Source: Magnolia sinica (taxonomy: Eukaryota > Streptophyta > Magnoliopsida > Magnoliales > Magnoliaceae). Taken from it: 64,000 nt of DNA. The stretch lies in the NCBI RefSeq assembly GCF_029962835.1, contig NC_080574.1, positions 23,410,001 to 23,474,000 of the forward strand, read 5' to 3'. The notes below the pieces were generated by a model, which saw nothing but the letters and a program-made list of their open reading frames with translations, did not search any database and was not told where the DNA came from. A program made the translations under genes and the position numbers. This document shows positions 4,065-61,920 of this stretch, in pieces (the stretch's first letter is position 1; every line of letters begins with the position of its first letter).

Positions 4065-5442
4065 TGGGTCCACTGTGCTGTCTGTGTGACATCCAATCTG
4101 TCCATCGGGTGCGTTACTCGTTGCTAGGCCGCACTGCCAAAAATTAGCCAGATACACAACCCAGGTGAGCCACACCACAGTAAACAATGGGGACGAGTTT
4201 CTAACTATGGGTTTGTATGTGGGGCCACCATGGTTTGTATCTTCTATCAAACCCGTTCATCAGGCATGGTTCGCTGGGATGAAGTTAATAACGGAAAAGA
4301 GCTTGATCCAAAACTCAGGCAGGCCACACCATGTGAATGTAGAGTTTTAGCCCATCTAAGTTTCTTTATCCGGCTGATCTTTCGTCCTTTGAATCATCCC
4401 ATTTGGATTCCTCCAATCACCCCTTCGGATTTAAAGGCCACTAAGTCCTTATGCTAACAATATAAAGATAGAGCACTCTTTTTAAGTTGTGGGCTGCTAG
4501 TTGCCTGCACTGGGACACTTAAGTCTAATCCATTAAACTATACAATTCATTAGGTTCACTGCCCTTTAATGGATTACCATACATGCCCATCTTAACTATC
4601 TAATCAATCATTTAATATTGAAGGCCAAGATCATTTACACACAAACGTACAAACATTTGGAATTCGAAGATTTCACCAACATCTTTGCTGGGGTTTATCA
4701 TGGTTTGTTGCATTTTAAAATAAATTAGTGTTTTTGAAAATTTCCGTTGGGCCGGGCCAAGGCTATAGCCATGGATGTGTGCAAGTCTATGGACATGTCT
4801 TTTCACACAAGTTGGAAAGTTAGTACCCTTTCATTTTTATTTTGAAAAGTTGTCTTCTCAAACCTGGGGACACCAATTGGGTTTCAACTCAATAGTCACA
4901 ACTCCTTTTAAAAGGGCATATCTACACTTTCAAGGGTGTCTTCATAAAGTCTATAAATAGACTTCTTTTGTCTAGCCTTCAAGCATAAAATAAATAAATA
5001 AATAAATAAATAAAAGAAAAAGTCTAATTTTACCTTTAAAGTGTGGTTACATGTTTTTTCATTTAGGTTAAAACTACAAATGATTAAAGCCCATATACAG
5101 TGAGTGCATTGTTGGCATTAGGTGAGAGTTATTATATCCTGATGATCGATTGCATGAAAAGTTATGTTACACTTGGGAGGTGGTCCATGGATGGCAAATT
5201 CAGTTTCAAGTTAGAGTGATTCTAAATCGCACCTCGACTTCTTCGAACTAATAATTTTTCTTTCTTATTTTACTTTTATAAATACAATTGAAATAGTTTT
5301 TCAAAACTCAAATTTCAACATGATTTACTTAGGATGGTAAATGATCCGTATTGTTAGATAATTCTAACTATTCTATTAAAGAATGGCTAAAAAATTGTCC
5401 AAATTAAATATGGATTGGATCATCAAATTAGTGTCATCCAAA
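2771..5442. other. Gene-free spacer with fold-back repeat pieces
   Basis: No gene seen. It contains a GTGGGGCCCAT segment near 3131 and a terminal piece of a fold-back repeat at 3915-3993. The internal palindrome near 3953-3976 (CCTCATGGGAAGTTCCCATGAGG core) matches, in opposite orientation, the segment at 8862-8910. Another fold-back-like stretch lies at 4064-4340. The long open frames around 3.8-4.2 kb are translations of the TA repeat. Confidence 0.5.
4001..4062. repeat. (TA)n microsatellite
   Basis: About 31 TA units directly after a fold-back repeat end. It generates spurious TIR-IYIYIY-type translations in several frames. Confidence 0.95.
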
Positions 5443-5640
5443 CAAATATCCTTTTCACACCCAGATCCATAGCTCAACTGGCAGACTGAGTGGAGATACC
5501 TCATTTCAACACTTGAGGTCTTGGTATCGATCCCTAGCGGGGGTGGCTAACATGGAGTGTGTGTACTGACATGGGTGTGTACTAACAAGTTAACCCAAAA
5601 ATAATAATAATAATAATAAATAAATAATCAAATACCCTTT
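5443..5640 (+). mobile_element. tRNA-derived SINE with target-site duplication
   Basis: The body at 5455-5628 has an RNA polymerase III A box (TAGCTCAACTGGCAGACTGAG-like, near 5473), a B box (GGTATCGATCCC, near 5522), a tRNA-unrelated body and an (AAT)n/(AAAT)n tail. Flanking direct repeats CAAATATCCTTT (5443-5454) and CAAATACCCTTT (5629-5640) differ at one position and fit a 12-bp target duplication. It resembles Au-like plant SINEs. Confidence 0.8.
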
Positions 5641-5972
5641 AAATGTCAGTCTCTAGAAAAATAATTAACCCTTAAACGTTTAGTGTGTTCTCGAAAAATG
5701 GGCCTCTACATGTGTCCTGAGCACTGTTTTAAGACTTTTCCTAGGCCGATCATCCAAATTGACTCCGACTCAGTCGGACCAGCTTGATACTTGAGTCACC
5801 CCATCTCAAGAGCCGGGCTGAAAGATATGTATGTATACATGATGCATGCAGAGTACTTGACCTTTGCCCTAGCCATTCAGACCCCTACTGTTGCAACATG
5901 TAGGTCATGGGCTCCATCATAGCCATCCGCCATGATATAACTAAAATACATACTTTATATGTTGATATATGT

Positions 5973-7347
5973 TGTTGGGAGACCATGGAAGCACAGGGAG
6001 ATGAATCAAGTGAAGTAATCTAATCACACCAAGCAAACACAACGCAAAAACCCCGAATTTAACGTAGAAAAATATTTACGGAAAAAAACAACGGCACAAA
6101 GTGATAAAAAGCACTATAAAAGTAGAAATTATAAGAAATAGAGATAAAACTAATTCAAACAAGCCATGAATCTCCCTTTACAAGCTATTAAAATCGTAGA
6201 AACAAATTAAAAAGCCTTAGGTATCTCCCAATCCCGATTATACCCAAATATATAGCCTTTACGAGAATTCCAATCAAAATCATAAACAAATTTTGCAAAT
6301 TTGCAGATCTGTGTAAAATCGTTCGATGACATTGAACACACTTCGATGTCATCAAAATTTAACATTCGATGACCTCGAAGCCATTTAGATGTGATGTAGA
6401 GTAGGTAGCGGACAGTTTCATGGCCAAGATGGATTAGAAAAGGCCTAGTCGACGACAGAAGTGATCCGGACCATCGGACCTTAGATCGGGCGTATCTCGC
6501 AATCCGGAATGAGTTATCTGACATAAAATATATGATTTTGGGGTAGAATGAGCTACTTTAGCCAACCAACCCTATTATGCCCGGTTGCGCAGCCCAGAAT
6601 TGCGAAAAACCCCTTGATCGATGGTCGTTTCCCTATTTTAATTCCGTTTTTACTATAAATAGTAAGTTTTAGTTTGATTATAACTCTTCATCCGTCGGGC
6701 TTTAGGAGTTGTGCCCAACGTGAAAAGAGCTTAGAATAATTAGGAGAACGGTTTGGTGAAGCCAAATAGGACACTTACTATTTTTTGCCGAAAACCTTAC
6801 GCACTAGTAGACATCAGGACCGTCTATAAATAGTAAGTTTACTATTTATAGTAAGTCGCGGATTCTAGGAGTTTGAGTTGTAGTTTGATTCTGATTTCTT
6901 TCCCATTGCTTGGTACCCTTATAAGGGCTGTGAACTCGTTTTTAAGAATTCATCAATCAATTTCGAATTTTTTCGAATTTATTAGAATTTATTTCTATTT
7001 TCTGCTTTCTTTCCTCGTGGATTCGAGAAGTCTCTGTGAGGAGTCCAGAGAAGTTCCGTGGATTCAGAATAGTTATCCTCTTGAGGAAGATGGTGCTCGA
7101 CCTCACGTCCTCCCCTGCGTCAAGATGACATCGAAAAATTACCAAAATGTTCCAGGGACCAAATATGAAAATCCGGACATTACTGATGACACCGACCAAA
7201 CCTTTGATGACATCGAATGGTCTTCGATGGCATCGTAAAGGCACCAAAGTGTCCAGCAATCAAATCGATTAATTCAAAAAAATCTCAATGGTATCGACCT
7301 TGTCATCGACAGACAGATGATTTATAGATTTAAGACATCTATCAACA
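5973..7347 (-). mobile_element. Solo LTR, Copia-like family, carrying a nested solo LTR
   Basis: The ends are TGTTGGGAG at 5973 and ATCAACA at 7347, flanked by a perfect 5-bp target duplication TATGT (5968-5972 and 7348-7352). Leaving out the nested element at 6392-7122 the LTR is about 640 bp. Its end and its repeated GATGACATCGA-type words are shared with the LTR at 43299-43842. Orientation is inferred from the related LTR at 575-1113, which is attached to a gag fragment. No internal region remains. A solo LTR cannot be dated from its own sequence. Confidence 0.8.
6392..7122 (+). mobile_element. Solo LTR (Gypsy-like family, copy 1) nested in a Copia-like solo LTR
   Basis: The ends are TGATGTAGAG and CTGCGTCA, with a perfect 5-bp target duplication AGATG at 6387-6391 and 7123-7127. 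Two more copies of this family lie at 44436-45129 (plus) and 46046-46693 (minus). All share a segment containing CTACTTTAGCCAACCAAC and the palindromic TTACTATTTATAGTAA block. No protein-coding region is attached to any copy, so the superfamily assignment is tentative. Confidence 0.8.
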
Positions 7348-29168: not shown

Positions 29169-32100
29169 AGTCATCGTTTGGAACGTGCGCGGTATCGGAA
29201 ATCGCTGCTCTGTGTTCTCTGCTAAGTGTCTCATTCAAAAGTTCGATCCTCTCATTGTGGCCCTCCTTGAACTTATGCTCTCAGATAATAAGAGAGTGGG
29301 GGTTGGCTTATCGCTGGGCTTTTACCAATCTTTCTCTAACGCCGCTTGTGGAGGAAAGATTTGGGTCTTTTGCAGATCTCAGATTTCAACTTCCCTTATT
29401 CATTCTACTAACCAATCATTATCTATTACATTTACTCTGCAGCAATTTTCTTTGCCTATTACGATGACTTCGTTTATGCGAGTTGTGTCAGGCTCCAAAG
29501 ACGTGGCCTATGGAGTGATTTAGCATCTCTATCTTTGGCCATTCATAGCCCCTGGCCAGTTTCTGGTGATTTTAACGCAACCTCTGCTGCAGATGAAAGG
29601 TGTAGTCGGACTGTCCCAGACACTGCGAGTTCGGCTGACTTTGTGGCTGCTATTGACTATGCGGGCCTGCAGGATGCCAGTTTCTCTGGCAACCAGTTCA
29701 CGTGGAGTAACAATAGAGGCGGTTTGGCCCATGGGTGGGCCAGATTGGACAGAGTCTTATTGAATGCGGCCTGGTCCGTATCTTTTCCTGGTTTTCATGT
29801 TACCTATCTTCCTCGAATTAACTCAGATCATGCTCCGCTCTTACTCCAGTGCCCCCCACTTTCGCCCAGCATTGTGAAGCCTTTTCGGTTCCTAAATATG
29901 TGGATTCGTCACGAATCTTTCCATCAGGTGGTAAACTCAGCCTGGGTTTCAACCGGTTCCAATCACCCAATACACAACGTCATAGCGAAATTAAAAAGTG
30001 TCAAGCAGGCTTTGAAGGTGTGGAATAGAGATGTCTTTAGGAATATTTTCTCTCATGTTGGCTCTGGCAGAACTAGAAGTCGAGAAATGTGAAAGATTGG
30101 TTCAACATCATCCGGATGGGCTCCTATCAAATGGCGACTTGCAGCTGAATTTGATGCAGCGGTCTCGAACCTCTCCTGCCTTCAACTCCTAGAGGAATCC
30201 TTTTGGCAGCAAAAATCTAGGGTGGTGTGGCTCGCTGCGGATGACAAGAACACTAGGTTTTTCCACGCTATAGCGAAAGAAAAGCATCGAAAATCAGTCA
30301 TTCATAGCATTACCCTTGATTCGGGGTAGACTCTTGTTGTAAATGCAGACATCAAACGTATAGCGGTGGTCCATTTCTCTGGTTTGTTTGAGGCGAAACC
30401 GAGTGTCATGTGTAATGACCTGTTTGATGTCATCCCTTCTACAATTTCCCCTGACCAAAATGCGTTGCTGACGGCCCCCCCATCGGAATTGGAGATTCAG
30501 CAAGCGTTAAAGTCAATTCCTGTGAAAAGTGCGGTTGGCCCCGATGGTTTTACAGCCTCCTTCTTCTCTGCCTGCTGGAGCATTGTGAGCAGAGATCTGT
30601 TTGAGGTTATCTCCTTCCTGTTTCAAGGTGGCAATCTCCCTCGAGCGATCTCCGCATCTCTGATTTGTCTGCTTCCCAAAGCGGCGACACCGAATAAATT
30701 CTCCGACTTTAGGCCAATCAGTCTTTGTAGCATTCTGTACAAGCTGTTTTCTAAGCTTATTGCAAACAAGTTGAACCAGCTTATGTCGCTCCTCATCTCG
30801 GAAGAACAAGGTGCCTTTGTGCAAGGAACATCGATTGCGAATAACATTGCTCTCGCTCAAGAGTTTTTCAGAGATTTAAACAGAAAGGTTCAGGGAGGTA
30901 ATATTGTGCTCAAGTTGGATATAGAAAAAGCATATGATAGGCTCAATTAGATTTTCCTTAAACAGGTCTTGGCTAAGTTCGGCTTCTGTTCCACGTGGAT
31001 CAAGTTGGTTGAGAAACGTTGGGCAAATTCCTGGTTCTCGGTTCTAGTTAACGAGGAGGTTTCTGGTTTCTTTAAGTCCTCGAGAGGGCTGAGGCAGGGG
31101 GATCTGATCTCGCCTAGTCTCTTCATTATTGCTACAGAAGTTCTGAGAAAAGGTCTCAAATCTTTAGGCATCAACAGTCGTTTTAAGCAGTATCAGACTA
31201 GGAGTGGTTGCCCTATAGTCTCCCACCTTCTGTACGCGAATGACACACTGTTGTTTCTCAACGATGGGCTCTCGTCGTTAAGGATTTTAAAGTCATTCCT
31301 CGACAGTTATCAGCAGGGATCGGGGCAGAAAGTTAATCTATAAAAAAGCGCGTTCATCCATTCCACCAAGCTGGGTGAACCGAGGGTGCGCACCATTGAG
31401 TCGGTCCTTGGGATTACTAGAGCGACAGGGGTGTTTACTTATTTAGGGGTCCCTTTGGTCATAGGGAGACTGAAGGCTTCCTTTTTTTGCCCTCTGATAG
31501 ACAGGGTAGAAGGGAGCATCAGGGGCTGGCAGTTAAGATGTTTATCGCAAGCGAGGAAGGCGGTCTTGATCGAGCATGTATTGACCAGCATTCCCATTCA
31601 CACCTTGGCAGCCGTCCATATCCTGTCCATTGTTCTGAAAGACCTTGAGAAGAGGTTTGCGGCATTTTTCTAGGGCCGGAAAGATGGTAAAAGCAAATGT
31701 CATTGGGAGAGCTGGAAGTCTATTGCTTCCCCCAAAGAAGAGGGGGGCCTGGGGATTAGGAAGCTGAAGGATATCATGTCTGCATATCGGCTAAAGATGG
31801 CCTGGGAGATCAGAGTTGTGGCAGAAAAAAGTCTTTGGTGCTCCTTCATTGCTGCCAAATATAGTCATGATCTATCCGTGCCCGACTTACTTCAACCGGC
31901 TACGTTCGCGTCCTCAATCTGGAAAAAAAAATTCGCTGAGATCCCTGCTATGGATTCCTTCGTTCAGTGGCATTTGGGCGAAGGTAGCTGCAAATTCTGG
32001 TTGGACAATTGGACTGGTCTCAGCCCACTCCACTTATTATCTTCAGCCCCCTGTTCCGGCCTCCCTCCTTCAGCTGAAGACAAAAATGGCCCCCTAGCCC

Positions 32101-33300
32101 CCTCAGCGTCTTTCAATTTCCTGCCTCAGTGGGTCATCAACTTTATTTTTCAACGTGGTTTCTGCATCTCTGAAGGGATTGATTCCCCTATATGGCCTTT
32201 TTCCGCGTTGGGTTGGTTTTCCCTGGCGTCGGCCTGGGAGAAATGCCATTCTCCGTTGCCTAACAGAAGTTGGGCGCGTGGGGTGTGGCATGGCAAACTC
32301 TCGCCGAGGATCGCTTTGCTCTCCTGGAGGTTGTTATCGAAAGCAATTGCAGTCGACGAAGCTATCCAATCTCATGAAGTTAGTTTGGCATCCAAATGTG
32401 TCTGTTGCTGTCGTAATTCTCGGCAAGGCCACTCCTCTAAATCCAGTTCCCATCTTTTCCTGAACAGCCAGCTTGCAACTGTGGCCTGGTCCTTCTTCAG
32501 CAGGCTGTTTGGCGTCCATGTCTTGGAGACTGACTCGGTCAAGGCCAGATTGGCCCAGTGGTGGGCTGCCACTGCTTCTGGCTCGGCGAGATCTACATTG
32601 CATAAGTTGGCCCCGTCCATCATTTTATGGTGCATCTGGAAGTGTAGGAACACTGCTCTCTTTGATGACATAACTCCTTTGACTAATTTTGTGATTGCCA
32701 GAGATAATTGGTGGTTTTCCCTCATCAATGGCGAATTGGGGGAGGGAGCATTACTGGGTTTTCACGGCAGCACGGCCCATGTTGCTCGTTCAGCGGCCAC
32801 TGCTGGAATTCATGTCAGGCTCGCCCCTCTCTCTCTCTGCCTGCCGTTGAAGCCCCCATCTTGGCCCCTCCCACCAGCCCAAGGTGGTGAGATGGGTCAA
32901 ACCGCAACTAGGTTGGGTGAAGATTAATGTGGACGGTTTGTCTCTCGGCAATCCAGGTAACTCAGGTGGGGGAGGTGTGTGTAGAGACGATAAAGGTAAT
33001 TTTCAATTCGCCTTCTCCATTGGATATGGGATGGGCTCGAATGTCAATGCAGAGCTGAGAGCAATCGTGGATGGAATGGATCTATGCATTCGTAGCGGTT
33101 TTACGATTGTGATTGTGGAATCAGATTCGCAGCTGGCGGTCAATTTCCTATCTGACGTTCATAACCTCGGCTGGAAATGGGGGTATTGGATCCAGAGGAT
33201 CCACCACATTAGGCAATGTAGAAATTTTATTTTCCAACATATCTTCAGGGAAGGAAACGCCGTGGCTGACCAGATGGCCCGTTTGGGGAGTTCGGGATAA
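29161..33300 (+). pseudogene. LINE ORF2 (endonuclease-reverse transcriptase-RNase H), decayed
   Basis: It starts at ATG 29161, overlapping the ORF1 stop. The endonuclease part shows WNVRGIG, LLELM, SGDFNAT (near 29569) and NSDHAPL (near 29819). The frame shifts once at about 29490-29507. A local double shift lies at about 30057-30160. In-frame stops are at 30327 (TAG), 30948 (TAG), 31341 (TAA) and 31671 (TAG). The reverse transcriptase part shows SAVGPDGFTASFF, FRPISLCSILYKLFSKLIA, motif A LKLDIEKAYDRLN, motif B RGLRQGDLISPSLF and motif C YANDTLLF at 31233, where the family has YADD. A WHGKLSPRIALLSWRLL segment with a CVCC cysteine cluster follows (zf-RVT). The last part, in another frame, is RNase H. 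Confidence 0.92.
32884..33300 (+). pseudogene. RNase H domain at the C-terminus of LINE ORF2
   Basis: In a frame shifted relative to the reverse transcriptase part, the sequence reads GWVKINVDGLSLGNPGNSGG, then AELRAIVDGMDLC, ESDSQLAVNFL and GNAVADQMARLG. These carry the four acidic residues expected for RNase H1-like domains (Asp in NVDG, Glu in AELRA, Asp in ESDS, Asp in VADQ). The domain itself is open. Acquisition of RNase H by a plant L1 lineage is known. This is therefore the element's own C-terminus and not a host gene. Confidence 0.9.
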
Positions 33301-38794: not shown

Positions 38795-39465
38795 GTTTGA
38801 ATTTGGGAGAAGTCTCCTTACCGACCCACCAGCATTCTGCATTGTAGCAAAACTCCAACTATTCGAAACTACTGTGTCATGTTATCTGGTTTTCTTAGAC
38901 AAAAGGCTCTCAGGAAGGTCAGTATCTCCCACCTTCTAATTCTTTTTTTCTCTTTGTGCTTTTCCTCTCTCATAGCTTCTCCAGAGAAAACAAGATATTG
39001 GTACTTAGCTTAGAGTCTCCAACAATCTCAGACCAGAAGAAACTGCGAATTTAATTAGCCGGGTCCAGTTTTCTAGTCTTTTTCTTTCCTTCTTCCTTCC
39101 TTCAATTGGGCTTACCAGGAAAAGAAAAGGAAAAAAAGAAAAAAGAAATGTGTATGTAGCTTGGTCGCCTAAATCTCAGTCCCAAAATGAAAATCTCTTA
39201 TGGGTTTGTTAGCAAAATTGAAGAAATGGGTATTAAGAAAAGGTTCTTAAGAATCTCAGTTGCTACAGTTCTCTAGTGTGTGTATTTCTACTAGAAAAGT
39301 GTGTTTTTTTGAAGTTATTTTTATTTTTATTTTTAATGTTTATTTGAAAGAGTCAAGAACCTCAGAATCAAAACAACTGCTAATTTATTGGATTGGGTCT
39401 CATTCTCTCTTTTCTTTTGGTCTTTTTTGTCATCCAAACAAAACCCAGAAAGAGGAGAGAAAAAA

Positions 39466-40287
39466 ATGGATATTTCCACTCATGAAGTAGAAATCCCAAT
39501 CCCAATAAGCAGCAGCTATGCAGGTGGTGGACATGGACCTCATGTTCATGCCCACATGATCCATGACCCCCACCACATCATCCCATCATCAGCTACCCAG
39601 CTCCTTCCCTCAAATGGGCCTATCCCTCCTCCAACACTAGTAGTAGAGGACCATACGCCATACAAGAAATCGATCAGGTACAAAGAATGCCTAAAGAACC
39701 ATGCAGCAGCCATGGGTGGGAATGCCACAGATGGGTGTGGTGAGTTCATGCCAGGTGGAGAGGAAGGAACCCTTGAAGCCCTCAAATGCTCAGCCTGCAG
39801 CTGTCACAGGAACTTCCACAGGAAAGACATAGAAGGCGACCCCTCCTGTGACTTGTACCATCATCTCAGGGTGGGGCCCAGGAAGGTAGTTGGCCAGAAG
39901 GGTGTCCTGATTGCTGGGCCAGATGCATTTGGGTACCCCACAGCAGGCAGCCTCATGACCCCCAGGCCCACTACTCAGATGATAATGTCATACAACTTGG
40001 GAGGGCTGCCATCAGAGTCAGATGAACAGGAGGGGGGTGGTGGGGCCCAGGCCAGGCATCCAATGGTGAAGAAGAGGTTTAGGACCAAGTTCACAGCAGA
40101 GCAGAAGGAAAAGATGTTGGAGTTTGCTGACAAGGTTGGGTGGAGGATTCAAAAGCAAGAGGAAGGAGTGGTGCAGCAGTTCTGCCAAGAGATTGGTGTG
40201 AAGAGGAGAGTTCTCAAGGTTTGGATGCACAACAACAAGCATAACCTTGCAAAGAAGGTTTCTACACCTACTTCCACTGAGGGCTGA
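39466..40287 (+). CDS. Zinc-finger homeodomain (ZF-HD / ZHD) transcription factor
   Basis: This is a single uninterrupted frame of 273 residues. I chose the ATG at 39466 (MDISTHEVEIPIPIS) because that opening matches ZHD3/ZHD4-type proteins; the frame is open further upstream only through non-ATG codons. Residues 71-124 are the ZF-HD dimerisation zinc finger: YKECLKNHAAAMGG, then DGCGEFMP and LKCSACSCHRNFHRK, with its Cys/His ligands present. A His-rich stretch lies at 24-37. Residues 202-263 form the homeodomain, from KKRFRTKFTAEQKEKM to the family-typical recognition-helix segment KVWMHNNKH. ZHD proteins are plant-specific, mostly intronless, nuclear, dimerise through the finger and bind ATTA-type sites. 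They act in floral, vascular and stress development. It looks intact and functional. The subgroup assignment is from memory. Confidence 0.96.
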   Translation: MDISTHEVEIPIPISSSYAGGGHGPHVHAHMIHDPHHIIPSSATQLLPSNGPIPPPTLVVEDHTPYKKSIRYKECLKNHAAAMGGNATDGCGEFMPGGEEGTLEALKCSACSCHRNFHRKDIEGDPSCDLYHHLRVGPRKVVGQKGVLIAGPDAFGYPTAGSLMTPRPTTQMIMSYNLGGLPSESDEQEGGGGAQARHPMVKKRFRTKFTAEQKEKMLEFADKVGWRIQKQEEGVVQQFCQEIGVKRRVLKVWMHNNKHNLAKKVSTPTSTEG

Positions 40288-42242: not shown

Positions 42243-43298
42243 TAGCTTCTTTATTTATATGACACTTTGGTTATTTTGATAATCTTTTAACAAATAATAC
42301 CTTATGTGACTTGAAAAAACAAGCTGATGTCTACTCAGCTTCCAAATGTTAAGAACTTAACCAATATGTTCTTTTTATGTTTGTCACTTTGGTTATTTAG
42401 ATAACCCTTAACACAAATAATACCTTATGTGACTTGAAAAAGGTAGTGTTGACTCACCCACCGAATGTTAAGAACCTAACCAACATGCCTTTTTTTTATG
42501 GCACCTTGGTTTATACTGGTAAACCATAATCTTTTCAATAAATAGGACTTCATGTGACTCGAGCATATAAGGTACTGTTGACTCGGTCGCCAAATGTTAA
42601 GGATCTAATTAATAGGCTGGTTTTTATGACACTTTGATTATCTAGGTAAACCTTTCGACTAATAATACCTTATGTGACTTGAACAAACAAGGTGGTATTA
42701 ACTCAGCTACCAAATGTTAAAAACATAACCAAATATGTACTTTTCTTTATTACACTTTGGTTATTCAAGTAAACCTTTCTACAAATAGTAACCCATGTGA
42801 CTTGAACAAACAATGTAGTTTTGACTCTACTACCAAATGCTAAGAACCTAACCAATACGCCATTTTTTTCTTTGTAAACCTTCCACAAATAGTACCTTAT
42901 GTGACTTGAACAAATGATCTAGTGTTGACTCTACTACCAAATGTTAAGAATCTAGCTAATACTTCTTTTTTTTTTTATGGCACTTTGGTTATCTAGGTAG
43001 CCTTTCCATAAATAGTAGTACCTAATATGACTTAAACAAACAGTGTAGTGTTGACTTTACTACCAAATGTTAAGAACCTAATCAATATGTTTTTTTATGT
43101 ATGGCAATTTGATTATCCAGGTAAACCTTTCCACAAATAGTATCTTATGATGCTTGAACAAATGATGTAGGGTGGACTCTACTACCAAATGTTAAGAACC
43201 TAACCCATATGCCTTTTTTCCTTTATGGCACTTTGGCTATCCAAGTTAACCTTTCCACAAATAGTACCTTACGTGACTTGAACAAATGATGTAGTGTT
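42243..43298. repeat. Tandem array of about 120-bp units
   Basis: About nine imperfect units each contain CACTTTGGTTAT, GTAAACCTTTCCACAAATAG, CTTATGTGACTTGAACAAA, TTGACTC and CCAAATGTTAAGAACCTAACC. The AATGTTAAGAAC-type motif recurs near 42345, 42466, 42593, 42713, 42837 (variant), 42938, 43064 and 43186. Most units are 120-127 bp and one is about 101 bp. The last unit is cut by the LTR that begins at 43299. No coding potential. Confidence 0.9.
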
Positions 43299-49198: not shown

Positions 49199-49454
49199 AT
49201 CTCATACACGTTAAGTCGTTTACCTTACAGAAGCATTGGGCACGCTATTTCAAGGCTAATGGCAGCCACGCATGAGTTATTCATCAAGAAAACAAGATAT
49301 AGAAAAATAGAAAAATGGAATGTATAAGGTAGACGATGTTGCATATGAAAAGGAAAACCAACCTTAGAATTGAACCCAGTCAAGCTGGGCCTCGGCTCGA
49401 ATTCAGTTCAGCTCGGCTCGGTATTTGAGCCTGATTGGGCAACTCAGCTCAACT
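49199..49454 (+). repeat. Direct repeat, copy 1 (about 256 bp)
   Basis: It runs from ATCTCATACACG to CTCAGCTCAACT and is nearly the same as 49768-50022, with about ten differences by eye. It includes an AAGCTGGGCCTCGGCTCG zone. The two copies are separated by 313 bp containing part of a fold-back repeat (GTGGGGTCC near 49513, CATCATGGTGGGACC near 49607). Confidence 0.85.
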
Positions 49455-49767: not shown

Positions 49768-50022
49768 ATCTCATACACGTTAAGTCGTTTACCTTACAGA
49801 AGCATTGGGCACGCTATTTCATGGCTAATGGCAGCCACGCAGGACTTATCCATCAAGAAAACAAGATATAGAAAAATAGAAAATGGAATGTATAAGTTAG
49901 ACGATGTTGCATATGAAAAGGAAAACCAACCTTAAAATTGAACCCAGTCAAGCTGGGCCTCAGCTCGAATTCAGTCCAGCTCGGCTCGGTATTTGAGCCT
50001 GATTGGGCAACTCAGCTCAACT
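49768..50022 (+). repeat. Direct repeat, copy 2 (about 255 bp)
   Basis: The second copy of the 49199-49454 block. After it the sequence continues into a GCTCGAGCTTG / TTCGAGTTGAATTC-rich zone up to about 50400, ending near GTTCATGTGCGGCTCTACTCA. That zone resembles subterminal sequence of another hAT-like repeat. Confidence 0.85.
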
Positions 50023-56523: not shown

Positions 56524-59500
56524 TCAAGTCTGCAGTAAACAAAGGCGAGCTCGCCCAGGGTTGAGCAGAGACTCTGACATCACCCATCCCTGCAAAAAAT
56601 AAGACGATGATGCTTTGAAAGAATAAATCCATTGCTGTTTCAATATTAATGGCCAATCAGGAAATATTAAAGATTTAAAAAAAAAATAAAATGCTGTGCG
56701 TTCTTTTAACTGCGCACATGTCCATGTGATGGACATGACCCTATTTTCTTTTTGACAAGGACGATTTATTTTTAAATCAAATTGCTCTCTAAGACGTCAC
56801 CCGGGATGTAAGAAAAGAGCCTTATCATTTTTCATCATTTTGCATAGCTCATATGCTATTTACATAGTTTTCATGCTGCCTATTTTTCTGAATAACTTCT
56901 ACAAAATCCATAACTTGTGTAAAATCATCTTCACACGATGATATTAAAATATAACTGGACAGACAAATCAACTCGATGGCTTTCATAGAATTCCCATCTG
57001 ATAGTGCATTTCAAGTCTACCTTGCATGGTAACTATACTAATTTTTCGTATTTTCTGACTTTTCCTTATCTTTCAGTATTCTTACGCTATATATTTAAGA
57101 TAGATGCACCAGCATATCAGGCATCTCAAAAGCCATCATGTCTAAGACCCTGCATTAGGGTCCAACACTCATGGCTACCTTGAAGTAACATAGAAAGGCA
57201 TGGTTGTTCAAGAGCACCTGTTCTGCAGCTTTCCTTTTAAAGAGCACATATGAAGTTGAAACAATATTGCAAGACTCAGCAATCTGAGACGCAAAATCAA
57301 CAGTTGTAGGCATGAGATGGGTTGATAAGGATCTTTCAGAATCTGATTGGTCCAAGACACCATGCTCCCTTGAAGCCTGCTTCTGATTTGATGAACGGAT
57401 GAAATGTAGAAGTACATGAGCCTGCAACATCGGAAGATTGTAGTGACACATAAAAAGACCAGAGCTTTTGTCTGGAACCAAGCAATATACAGGAGCTAAA
57501 CTCACATGGAAAGCCGCTTTTAGAATATCATCGGACTTTGCTTGATCTTTCAGCAATGCATAAACATTACCTTTTGAAGGATTATAGGTTACCATGTATT
57601 TTTCTCTCTGCAGCACAAATAAAGAAATTGTCAATGCTAAAGATAAGAATGCTGTTTCCTTGAAAGATTGTACAGAGGAGGTTTCTAAGGATACCTCAAA
57701 CAAGGGTTCGATCGAGAGGAATGAAGCCGGTTCTTGAAAGGCATCTCTAAATCTCGGTCCTGCAAAACAGTCCAGACAGACATGAGTTTGACAGACATTA
57801 AAAAAAAAACATAAGAAACAACTGTGAACCACGTACCTAAAACAATAGGTCGGTCTTTTGACCATGGAAGAGTGAAGATGTTTTCCACTGAATTCCCTTC
57901 CTTTAATGAGGGAACGTGCCCTGCAGATTAGAAGAGCAAACAAAGCCATAAGAAATAGGGAAAATCCAAAACTAATGTTAAAAGCAAAAAGAATGACTTG
58001 GGAAATCAGTCATGTCTCTCTACTCGAACCACTCGATGGAGAACTCAGCAGCTTGTCCAAGTGGGGATGAGAAGTGGCTACAATCGAAAGAAAAAGAAGA
58101 AATCATGGAAAACAAAGTAGCAGAGGAAAACCCATGCTATAGAAGAAAGATTTTTATTTACGCATGAACTTTGGCCTTTTTTAAAATTCGAAAAATCAAA
58201 TGCTTTAATGATTGTTTTGCTGTTTTAATCATGCTCATTTGATGTGTTAATCATAGTAGAACATGTTAATGTAGCATTTTACAGATTTGGGGTGCCATTT
58301 ATATATTTTTTAATATTTTTTCTATTTACGCATGAATTTTGGCCCCTTTTTTAAAATTCGAAAAATCAAATTTTAATGGTTGTTTTGCTGTTTTAATCAT
58401 GCCATTTGATGTGTTAATCATAGCAGAACATGTTAATGTGCATTTTACAGATTTGGGGTGCCATTTTATATTTTTAATATTTTTTCTATTTACGCATTTA
58501 TTTTGGCCCTTTTTTTGAAAATTTGAAAAATCATTTTTTAATGATTCTTTTGCTGTTTTAATGACATCATATGATGTGTTAATCATAGTAGAACATGTTA
58601 ATGTGCATTTTACAGATTTGGGGTGCCATTTTATATATTTTTATATTTTTTCTATTTACGCATTTATTTTGGCCCTTTTTTTGAAAATTCGAAAAATAAT
58701 TTTTTAATGATTCTTTTGCTGTTTTAATGATTCCATATGATGTTTTAATCATATTAGAAAATGTTAATATGAATTTTACAGATTTGGGGTGCCATTTTAT
58801 ATTTTTTTATATTTTTTCTATTTACGCATTTATTTCGGCCCTTTTTTGAAAATTCGAAAAATCATTTTTTAATGATTCTTATGATGTATTAATGAAGTCA
58901 TATGAAATCTTAATCATAGTAGAACATGTTAATGTGCATTTTACATATTTGGGGTGCCATTTTATATTTTTTTTAATATTTTTTTCTATTTACGCATTTA
59001 TTTCGGCCCTTTTTTTGAAAATTCGAAAAATCATTTTTTAATGATTCTTTTGCTGTTTTAATGATGTCATATGATGTGTTAATCATAGTAGAACATGTTA
59101 ATGTGCATTTTACATATTTGGGGTGCCATTTTATATTTTTTTTTATATTTTTTTCTATTTACGCATGAATTTTGGCCCTCAAAAATAATTGCAAACACCT
59201 AAATGTAAGATATTTTCATATTACATTCATTCTAATATATCTATCATTGATAGTAGATAGTTAGAAAATTAAATATATGAATTTTGTAGTCAAATTCAGG
59301 TTATCTGGTTCATAAATTCATCAGACAGTCTGATACAACTTCTCACCAAAGAGTGGACCGTTACACCACCATAAACATGTTCCAATTTATAAATGAATGC
59401 ATATTTGGAATGCTTAGAATATTCCGGATTTAATCCATATTTTTCATATTTTTTTGACGAAAAAAAAATTTTGCACCGTTACGGGCTGTTACGCCCCCGT

Positions 59501-60915
59501 ATCACCGTTACGCCCCCAAAGATAAGAATGCTGTTTCCTTGAAAGATTGTACAGAGGAGGTTTCTAAGGATACCTCAAACAAGGGTTCGATCGAGAGGAA
59601 TGAAGCCGGTTCTTGAAAGGCATCTCTAAATCTCGGTCCTGCAAAACAGTCCAGACAGACATGAGTTTGACAGACATTAAAAAAAAAACATAAGAAACAA
59701 CTGTGAACCACGTACCTAAAACAATAGGTCGGTCTTTTGACCATGGAAGAGTGAAGATGTTTTCCACTGAATTCCCTTCCTTTAATGAGGGAACGTGCCC
59801 TGCAGATTAGAAGAGCAAACAAAGCCATAAGAAATAGGGAAAATCCAAAACTAATGTTAAAAGCAAAAAGAATGACTTGGGAAATCAGTCATGTCTCTCT
59901 ACTCGAACCACTCGATGGAGAACTCAGCAGCTTGTCCAAGTGGGGATGAGAAGTGGCTACAATCGAAAGAAAAAGAAGAAATCATGGAAAACAAAGTAGC
60001 AGAGGAAAACCCATGCTATAGAAGAAAGATAGGGAGAATTAGGGCCAGAGAGGGTGATCAGGGTTAGGGTTAGGATTTGGGTTAGGCAAACGGAGGAGGA
60101 AAAAAAGGTTTGAGTTGATTTTGCAGGTTCTGTACAATGGATAAGTAAAGATTTTAAAAGCGTGGAGAGGATGGGTATGAATAGATGTCCATTGTGTTGT
60201 TGTCAAAAAGATGCCAATATACCTGCGAGAGATGAAGAAACGATAGGATTATTCATCATCGGTGCCTTGGAAGGGCCTTGAAATACCACTTCTCATGTTT
60301 CTAACAACATTTTAGTTGACCTTGATACTTTGGCTTTTGTACGTTATATTGTCACTTCGGTAAAACCCAAAAAGCTGATACTGATGTTTTCAACTAACGA
60401 CCGAGTCATGTGTGCCCAACACTGACTCAACCAAGTTAATGGGTTCAAGCCTGTAGCTCAATGGTAGAAAGGGGGTGTTTCAACATTGAGGCCTAGGGTT
60501 CGAGTCCAGAGTACCTATCTCAAAAGGGGAGAGGGGAAAAAAAAAAGTGTGCCCAATACTTGCCTCCAAGATAGCATCTTCAAGAAGCATAATGTCCTGG
60601 TTATACAGGTTTTATGTCCAGTAAACAAGCAAAAAGACTCAACGAACCTGTCTTAAGGAAGGATTCCACGGCCACAGTGAACCTTGCCCTGTTCAAAGTA
60701 TGCAACACAACAGACTTCACCTGGAAAAAACACATGGATTGACAACATTGAGCAGTTTTTAACAAATTTTAAGAGAGAGTAAAAATTAGTACTTCACAGT
60801 AAGCAAGCCAAACCTCTTGATATGAGCTGAGAACATATCCACACGACAGCAGTGCAAAAGTGGTCACCAAGGAAGGGTTTCTTTTTGAGATCATGATGCT
60901 CAGTCCAGTCCCCAG
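56524..60915 (-). CDS. ROOT UVB SENSITIVE (RUS/DUF647) family protein, 3' part, spliced
   Basis: Seven coding exons read on the minus strand with GT/AG junctions and matching phases: 60814-60915, 60648-60720, 57837-57920, 57695-57759, 57506-57607, 57218-57421 and 56524-56589 (TGA at 56524). They total 696 bp, or 231 residues. Diagnostic pieces in order are GLSIMISKRNPSLVTTFALL, VKSVVLHTLNRARFTVAVES, IFTLPWSKDRPIVLG, GPRFRDAFQEPASFLS, REKYMVTYNPSKGNVYALLK, AHVLLHFIRSS, IAESCNIVSTSYVLFKRKAA and GWVMSESLLNPGRARLC. This is the C-terminal half of DUF647, closest in my memory to RUS4-type members. The 5' exons, with the start codon, lie beyond 64000 or were not recognised. RUS1/RUS2 act in early seedling UV-B responses and RUS4 in anther function. 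Exons 3 and 4 exist in a second copy at 59716-59799 and 59574-59638 (149 bp together, not a multiple of three). Whether this allele yields an intact protein depends on skipping one copy. Confidence 0.85.
57639..58151 (-). repeat. 513-bp direct duplication, proximal copy (RUS exons 3-4)
   Basis: It runs from AAAGATAAGAATGC to GAAGAAAGAT and appears identical by eye to 59518-60030, with a constant offset of 1879 bp and the same A-run lengths. It contains RUS exons 3 and 4, the intron between them, part of intron 4 (donor but not the exon 5 acceptor) and part of intron 2. It connects directly to exon 5 on its lower side. Confidence 0.93.
58152..59175. repeat. Tandem array of about 166-bp units between the duplicated RUS blocks
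   Basis: The word TCTATTTACGCAT recurs near 58155, 58319, 58485, 58651, 58817, 58984 and 59153, a spacing of 164-169 bp. Units also share AATTCGAAAAATCA, TGATGTGTTAATCATAGTAG, AACATGTTAATGTGCATTTT and TTTGGGGTGCCATTTTATAT. There are six complete units. There is no long open frame beyond an 86-residue incidental one. Confidence 0.92.
59176..59517. other. Unique tail of the inter-duplication insert
   Basis: AT-rich sequence ends in GCACCGTTACGGGCTGTTACGCCCCC-like wording immediately before the second duplicated block. GTTACGG words also occur at 61676-61920, hinting that both belong to one interspersed repeat family. No gene. Confidence 0.5.
59518..60030 (-). repeat. 513-bp direct duplication, distal copy (RUS exons 3-4)
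   Basis: The second copy of the block at 57639-58151. Its exons correspond to 59716-59799 and 59574-59638, with the same splice sites. It is connected to the upstream RUS exons on its upper side, so on the minus strand it is the first copy reached by a transcript. Confidence 0.93.
60410..60560 (+). mobile_element. tRNA-derived SINE with target-site duplication, in a RUS intron
   Basis: The body at 60424-60546 has an A box (TAGCTCAATGGTAGAAAGGG), a B box (GGGTTCGAGTCCA), a short 3' region and a poly-A end. Flanks GTGTGCCCAACACT (60410-60423) and GTGTGCCCAATACT (60547-60560) differ at one base of 14. It lies in antisense orientation to the gene, between exon 2 and the distal copy of exon 3. 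Confidence 0.85.
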
Positions 60916-61081: not shown

Positions 61082-61675
61082 ATGGTAAACCAGTGTTTTC
61101 AGTATCAGTATTGATGCATGCATTGCACCCTTGGGATACGGAAACACAATATTGGTGTCACATGGAAAATATTGCATGTATCAGGGAATGTATCTCTAAG
61201 CGAAACATTGGGAAAATGATGGAATTTTTCAATGAAGGTTCAGAATATGTTAAAAGGGACATGATTACACACTTAAAACTCAAGACATTACAAAAAACAA
61301 GAATCCATAATAAGTTCCTCAATATAAGGTCCCAAACTAAGCACTGTTTGATAGAAGTGATGCAATTATCAAAAAAGAGTACATATAATTCATAAATCAT
61401 ACAATACAAGTACCAAAACACAAACAATATAACAAAAACCAAAAAAAGAAACAAACATACATCTGTGCCCACTACATCCCAACAAGAGATTTCCCAAAAT
61501 AATCCCTAGAAAAATGCCTTTTTTTTTCAAATTGTCAGTTTTTACCACCCATGTGCTGCCTCGGTATTGTCTCGCATGTAATGATGATATCAGGGGACTT
61601 AATAAAGAAATCCAGAAGATATCTCGCGATATTTCGAAAATATCATGTGATATCATCAACCAAGGTATGCAAAAC
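60916..61675. other. RUS intron or upstream sequence with (TG)n
   Basis: A (TG)n run of about 17 units is at 61047-61080. I found no further DUF647 exon here on the minus strand. Confidence 0.45.
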
Positions 61676-61920
61676 AGTTACATAACAGCCATTACGGCCG
61701 TTACGTAAAGGCAATAGTAGCCACCATTATGCATCACAGGGTCATAACAGCTGTAATGGAAAAAATGGCCCATAACAGGCGTAATGGCCCTGTAAGGGTT
61801 TTTTTCAAAAACATTTAAAAATAAAAAATAAAAAAAAATCCATAATACCCGTTACGGCCCATGTCGTAATGGTAACAGTGATGGCCGTTATGGCCACCAT
61901 TACCGTTATGGAAGACCATT
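61676..61920. repeat. GTTACGG/CCGTAAC-rich interspersed repeat
   Basis: Inverted words CCATTACGGCCGTTACG, CCGTTACGGCCCATG and GATGGCCGTTATGG surround an A-rich core at about 61808-61840. It looks like a fold-back element with degenerate arms. No target duplication was identified. Confidence 0.5.

What the first reader, a model, noticed from the sequence alone, without database searches (positions are those of the whole stretch)
57639..60030. Identical 513-bp duplication of two RUS exons flanking a 1.37-kb insert
Two blocks (57639-58151 and 59518-60030) look identical base for base with a constant 1879-bp offset. The lower copy joins the downstream RUS exons and the upper copy joins the upstream ones, so the ancestral order was upstream, one block, downstream. 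Identity over intron sequence means either a very recent duplication with a tandem-repeat insert, ongoing gene conversion, or a false duplication made by an assembler from two alleles.
Basis: partly seen in the sequence, partly recalled or inferred. Interest (0 to 1): 0.75.

Follow-up and report, generated by a model that had tools for sequence, protein, structure and literature searches.

The report
Trimmed hAT transposon with 513-bp target duplication
In a plant gene of the RUS family, a transposon piece that has lost both of its ends sits between two identical 513-letter copies of the gene segment it landed in, and several other end-trimmed copies of the same transposon are flanked by long duplications too, which points to capture by DNA-break repair rather than normal jumping.

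Summary
The segment holds two exons of a RUS-family gene on the minus strand. The 1366 bp between the copies is an internal piece of a high-copy, non-autonomous hAT-like element; 33 of 35 distinct testable intact copies carry an exact 8-bp target duplication. Our copy lacks both element ends. Of nine other end-trimmed copies, five have a direct duplication abutting the element (56-429 bp, 94.6-100% identical), against 1 of 35 intact copies (Fisher P 0.0006). I read it as a recent capture of a trimmed element at a widely staggered break, whose fill-in duplicated the target. Recurrence at other loci makes an assembly error unlikely but reads were not available. The duplicated exons add 149 nt: an mRNA keeping all four exons shifts frame and stops at the sixth codon; skipping one pair restores the normal protein. 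Not known: alleles, transcripts, the source copy.

The parts
57639..58151 (.). Block copy 1 (513 bp); lies next to the downstream RUS exons D and F
   Evidence: 0 of 513 differences from copy 2
59518..60030 (.). Block copy 2 (513 bp); lies next to the upstream RUS exons U and T
58152..59517 (+). Insert, 1366 bp: internal piece of a hAT-like element, both termini missing (strand as the reference copy L012)
   Evidence: no other hit of the reference element in the window
58152..59179 (+). Tandem array of ~166-bp units (6.2 copies), internal to the element family
   Evidence: array listed as 58151-59179; units 84-98% alike; array present in other copies
59180..59517 (+). Tail of the element, ending 61 bp before the family's right terminus
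   Evidence: 2027 first-look candidates, 40 scored at 98-100%; reference position 1713 of 1774
57639..57644 (+). AAAGAT at the lower outer edge; copies of the same hexamer at 58146-58151, 59518-59523 and 60025-60030
60814..60915 (-). RUS exon T
60648..60720 (-). RUS exon U
59716..59799 (-). RUS exon A, upper copy (84 nt)
59574..59638 (-). RUS exon B, upper copy (65 nt)
57837..57920 (-). RUS exon A, lower copy (84 nt)
57695..57759 (-). RUS exon B, lower copy (65 nt)
57506..57607 (-). RUS exon D
57218..57421 (-). RUS exon F (last exon modelled; the ends of the gene were not determined)
   Evidence: one-copy splice of six exons gives PF24160 E 3.1e-12 and PF04884 E 3.2e-8, both above the curated cut-offs

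Best explanation
A break in a RUS gene, its two strands cut about 513 bp apart, was repaired by joining in a piece of a hAT-like transposon whose ends had been lost. Filling in the two long single-stranded ends copied the 513-bp target on both sides of the captured piece. The captured DNA was most likely an excised element that failed to reinsert and was trimmed at its ends, or else a repair-synthesis copy of a resident element. Shown: the fragment, its missing ends, the exact duplication, and an excess of such long duplications around trimmed copies compared with intact ones. Inferred: the break, the fill-in, the origin of the fragment, and that splicing around one exon pair keeps the gene working.
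For: Exact, sharply bounded duplication. Insert belongs to a high-copy family with constant termini and an exact 8-bp target duplication in 33 of 35 distinct testable intact copies, yet lacks both termini. Right terminus examined in 75 distinct copies; 6 lack it, ours included, and in all 6 a direct repeat of host DNA touches both element edges: 513, 223, 141 and 100 bp at 100%, 56 bp at 94.6%, 88 bp at 70.5%. L027, which lacks only the left end, has 429 bp at 99.5%. Index case left out, duplications of >=40 bp and >=90%: 5 of 9 trimmed against 1 of 35 intact copies (P 0.0006); right-trimmed alone 4 of 5 (P 0.0003). Left edges of the five other right-trimmed copies all lie in the first 185 bp of the element, as expected for trimmed whole elements.
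Against: Two of ten trimmed copies (L029, L057) show no duplication; L065 has only 25 bp with foreign filler; the L072 repeat, predicted beforehand, is only 70.5% alike, too diverged for a young insertion. L027 keeps one exact terminus, which suits a transposase reaction better. The source copy was not found (best held copy 95%). The AAAGAT borders (and GACC in L034) are not explained by this model. Copies were sampled by similarity to our own tail.
Confidence: 0.6

Rival explanations
1. Abortive or one-ended transposition: the hAT transposase joined one element end to the target, and host repair or replication resolved the rest, truncating the element and duplicating the target.
For: L027 keeps an exact right terminus directly at the start of a 429-bp duplication; aberrant products with one transferred end are discussed for other transposons (PMC3952818, passages).
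Against: Our copy and L006, L031, L032 and L072 lack both termini, and no 8-bp duplication borders them.
Confidence: 0.17
2. Unequal recombination between two copies of the element inserted 513 bp apart on two chromatids left one copy between two blocks.
For: It gives the same block-element-block order; discussed for Ac in maize (PMC4270019, passages).
Against: Needs two neighbouring insertions whose junction element lacks both termini; the reference element has no other hit in the window; the same short-range layout recurs at other loci.
Confidence: 0.06
3. Assembly artefact: two alleles or repeat copies joined falsely.
For: No reads could be inspected; the all-exon reading frame is broken.
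Against: No N in the window; only the block itself is duplicated, no more of its flanks; the same layout at other loci of the assembly; contig C2 is 140 Mb long.
Confidence: 0.07
4. Two steps: a tandem duplication of 507 bp between the two AAAGATA sites first, the element fragment at the junction later.
For: The two outer sites share 7 bp, AAAGATA (chance about 0.001).
Against: The second event would have to hit the junction exactly, here and at the other loci.
Confidence: 0.05
5. An older duplication kept identical by gene conversion.
For: Identity covers introns and exons alike.
Against: Conversion would hardly end at both exact edges; three other loci show the same perfect identity.
Confidence: 0.03

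Closest known systems
Tandem duplications by patch repair of adjacent nicks in rice (Vaughn et al. 2021, PMC7971508, passages read; Vaughn & Bennetzen 2014 and Schiml et al. 2016 seen only in its reference list)
   Same: Perfect direct duplications of target DNA ascribed to repair of nicks; duplications above 1 kb reported there.
   Different: Those are plain tandem duplications; here a transposon fragment lies between the copies.
[quoted passage not shown]
   Same: Non-autonomous hAT elements next to small direct duplications (116-1262 bp), one case with fractured elements.
   Different: There each duplicate is started by its own element copy, and two of the three cases show the 8-bp duplication pattern of the reaction; here there is one element piece without termini and no second element.
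Transposed genes with flanking direct repeats in Arabidopsis (Woodhouse et al. 2010, PMC2869330, passages read)
   Same: Inserted DNA bordered by direct repeats of the target sequence; long target-site duplication is named as one explanation.
   Different: Whole genes rather than transposon fragments.
T-DNA capture at breaks (PMC8395108 and PMC8348815, passages read)
   Same: Trimmed ends, filler DNA, microhomology; target site duplications are mentioned in PMC8348815.
   Different: Foreign DNA; here a resident transposon. A ~158-bp T-DNA target duplication is recalled, not checked.
Filler DNA repair that accompanies transposon insertion (PMC3445842, passages read)
   Same: Break repair by copying while the target duplication is being filled in.
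   Different: There a gene fragment is the filler; here the transposon piece itself is what lies between long target duplications.

Membership tests
hAT superfamily (source family of the insert) | 8-bp target site duplication in intact copies | tested here: met
   33 of 35 distinct testable intact copies exact, one with 1 and one with 4 mismatches
hAT superfamily (source family of the insert) | Short terminal inverted repeats | tested here: met
   Left CAGGGTGTGCCG, right ending CACCTTG (inverse CAAGGTGT) in intact copies; short and imperfect
hAT superfamily (source family of the insert) | hAT transposase | not tested
   The copies are non-autonomous; no partner was looked for
Normal hAT insertion (this copy) | Both termini present and bordered by an 8-bp duplication | tested here: not met
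   Right edge at reference 1713 of 1774, left edge inside the array
Break-repair insertion with long target duplication | Direct target duplication abutting an insert without termini | tested here: met
Break-repair insertion with long target duplication | Dependence on end-joining or gap-filling enzymes | not testable with these tools
   needs experiments
Reversed-ends transposition duplication | hAT termini at the duplication junction and an element copy at each duplicate | tested here: not met
   No termini; no further hit of the element in the window
Non-allelic recombination between two elements | Two neighbouring element insertions in the ancestor | not testable with these tools
   no other allele or relative held
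RUS gene family | RUS domains in the encoded protein | tested here: met
   PF24160 and PF04884 above curated cut-offs; which RUS member was not determined

The most novel reading that the evidence does not exclude
In this plant, hAT elements that fail to reinsert are regularly trimmed and captured at widely staggered breaks, much as T-DNA is, each time duplicating 50-500 bp of target. It would be a second insertion route for a cut-and-paste transposon, one that can duplicate whole exons in one step and leaves a readable record of how far apart the strands of a break were cut.
Probability: 0.35. Interest if true: 0.65.

Novelty: new variant of a known kind. Interest (0 to 1): 0.5.

Why it matters
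Exon duplication is usually put down to recombination or slippage. Here one capture of a transposon piece appears to have duplicated two exons exactly, and a similar footprint is found at other loci. Because the family is abundant and intact copies are easily told from trimmed ones, the lengths of such duplications could be read genome-wide as natural measurements of break geometry. Locally it predicts that this RUS allele depends on exon skipping or is weakened.

Tried and rejected
AAAGAT as the 6-bp target site duplication of a complete element: given up when intact family members showed 8-bp duplications and our copy proved to lack both ends. In-situ growth of a tandem repeat: rejected, the array belongs to the dispersed element. 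A frame-neutral exon duplication: rejected, 149 nt is not a multiple of three. Kinship of the tail with the GTTACG-rich repeat at 61.7-61.9 kb: shared motif only, no alignment found. RNA families at gathering threshold and tRNA genes: none in the window. Paper search for the terminal motif: 203 papers, 15 listed, none of those about a plant transposon. Paper search for transposon-linked tandem direct duplication by non-allelic recombination: none. Source copy: best held copy 95% alike; the whole-genome search for it did not complete. L059 was listed as truncated but has an exact 8-bp duplication, so it was dropped from the truncated group; it was not added to the 35 intact copies. L027 and L029 were misplaced by that script and were redone. 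L045 (intact, 8-bp duplication) lies in an older ~990-bp tandem repeat, 96.2% alike, and is the one intact positive; L066 has 73-75% repeats, and L015 and L044 have matches of 21 and 17 bp that are not adjacent. Fourteen of the 58 rows had less than 20 bp of left flank and were not testable there; L031 and L013 among them were resolved with wider flanks. The left edge of our insert given as reference 398 is an off-register array match; in register it starts further into the array, so the two figures that use it (left-edge and right-edge tests with our copy included) are replaced. That nothing like this is in print is not claimed; the searches made were made, in an open-licence library only.

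Full report
OBSERVATION. The two blocks are identical over 513 bp at an offset of 1879, and the match ends abruptly at 57639/58151 and 59518/60030. Of 41 repeat pairs of 60 bp or more in a window self-comparison it is the only one at 100%. The window is C2:23410001-23474000 of a 1.84-Gb assembly in 127 contigs; a search there found the block at these two places and one 72% relative on contig C4, L003. L003 has one copy of the two exons and no insert, and aligns in one piece from the downstream exons across the lower block edge; the upper edge is too diverged there to judge.

GENE. Splice sites and reading frame give minus-strand exons T 60814-60915, U 60648-60720, A 59716-59799 and 57837-57920, B 59574-59638 and 57695-57759, D 57506-57607, F 57218-57421. 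The one-copy protein matches the RUS C-terminal domain (PF24160, E 3.1e-12) and the end of the RUS domain (PF04884, E 3.2e-8). A plus B is 149 nt. Keeping all four exons gives a frameshift with a stop at the sixth codon after the upper exon B. Using either pair, or upper A with lower B, gives the same normal protein. Upper A, lower A, lower B stays in frame with a 28-residue duplication; upper A, upper B, lower B shifts frame. No transcript data were available.

INSERT. The 1366 bp consist of a tandem array of ~166-bp units and a 338-bp tail. The tail has 2027 first-look candidates in the genome, of which 40 were scored, at 98-100% identity. Counts of such repeats are lower bounds by the tool's own statement. 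In other copies the sequence goes on 61 bp beyond our right edge to a constant end, CACCTTG, and starts at CAGGGTGTGCCG or close variants. Thirteen copies measured from end to end are 1423-1882 bp long. Of 36 testable intact rows (35 distinct copies; L043 is L024), 34 rows (33 copies) have an exact 8-bp target duplication, one has 1 and one has 4 mismatches. An 8-bp duplication is the mark of the hAT superfamily (recalled; also stated for Ac/Ds in PMC3744419). Our insert has neither terminus, so it did not arrive by normal transposition, unless both ends were lost afterwards without loss of the flanking blocks.

RECURRENCE. The right end was examined in 75 distinct copies: 40, 7 further ones, and 28 further ones among the 30 loci (10 of the 40 rows were not fetched). 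69 keep the right terminus, counting L084 whose last bases differ. Six lack it, ours included. In all six a direct repeat of host DNA touches both element edges: ours 513 bp, L032 223 bp, L006 141 bp and L031 100 bp at 100%, L005 56 bp at 94.6%, and L072 88 bp at only 70.5%. L072 was a prediction written down first: the geometry was met, the recency not, and I count it as a miss. Four copies lack the left end but keep the right one: L027 has a 429-bp duplication at 99.5%, starting exactly at the right terminus; L065 has 25 bp at 96% with about 75 bp of foreign filler; L029 and L057 have none. With at least 40 bp and 90% identity as the criterion and the index case left out, 5 of 9 trimmed copies qualify against 1 of 35 intact ones (Fisher P 0.0006); right-trimmed alone 4 of 5 (P 0.0003). 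The one intact positive, L045, lies in an older ~990-bp tandem repeat, 96.2% alike. The criterion was set after seeing the first cases. Held left flanks of the intact copies are 93-487 bp, so a duplication is seen there only by its end next to the element. Two intact copies seen with wider flanks, L038 and L039, have no abutting duplication.

SHAPE OF THE FRAGMENTS. The left edges of the five other right-trimmed copies all fall within the first 185 bp of the element (P 4e-5 if uniform over 1374 bp). Three of their five right edges fall within 8 bp of one another (P 0.014), but our query ended there, so this is only suggestive. These pieces look like whole elements trimmed at the ends; L029, cut deep in the array, does not.

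MECHANISM. The economical reading is capture of an end-trimmed element at a break whose strands were cut far apart, with fill-in duplicating the target. Repair of adjacent nicks is how the authors of a rice study explain perfect tandem duplications (PMC7971508, passages). In maize, hAT elements are linked to small tandem duplications through a different reaction that uses element termini (PMC3744419, section 10). L027, with one exact terminus, leaves room for a one-ended transposase reaction. The AAAGAT borders of our copy and GACC in L034 remain unexplained and may be chance; the three other trimmed copies tested there have no such match.

AGE. Zero differences over 507 bp bound the event, at 95%, to about 0.2-1 million years for assumed rates of 1.5e-8 to 3e-9 per site and year (rates recalled). 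The array units differ by 2-16%, so the array is older than the duplication.

LIMITS. No reads, alleles or transcripts; species unnamed; source copy not found (best held copy 95%); copies sampled by similarity to ours; the transposase was not looked for.

Noticed in passing
49199-49454 and 49768-50022: A second direct duplication around an insert in the same window: 256 bp, 96.5% alike, 313 bp between, and the middle part resembles seven other places in the window. Possibly an older event of the same kind.
   Followed up: partly
L036 (reverse-complement coordinates): 598-2192 and 4560-6154: A 1595-bp direct repeat at 99.3% overlaps the 100-bp duplication around this trimmed copy, so that locus seems to have been duplicated twice.
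   Followed up: no
L065: about 139-240: About 75 bp of unrelated filler lies between a 25-bp target duplication and a left-truncated copy of the element, as if two fragments were joined in one repair.
   Followed up: partly
L012 and L042: Two copies on different contigs share the same right flank (GGTAGGACATTG), while the left 8-mer of L042 does not match: perhaps recombination between copies or a segmental duplication.
   Followed up: no
29412-32927: Broken LINE-type retrotransposon on the + strand: endonuclease-like, reverse transcriptase and zf-RVT matches.
   Followed up: no
42249-43298: Array of ~104-124-bp units, 71-84% alike.
   Followed up: no
60450-60550: By eye, a tRNA-derived SINE-like stretch with an A-rich end, between RUS exon U and the duplication; no tRNA gene is called there.
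   Followed up: no
61660-61910: Another repeat rich in CGTTAC/GTTACG motifs; it does not align with the insert.
   Followed up: no
39337-40287: ZF-HD dimerisation domain protein on the + strand (PF04770, E 5.9e-29).
   Followed up: no
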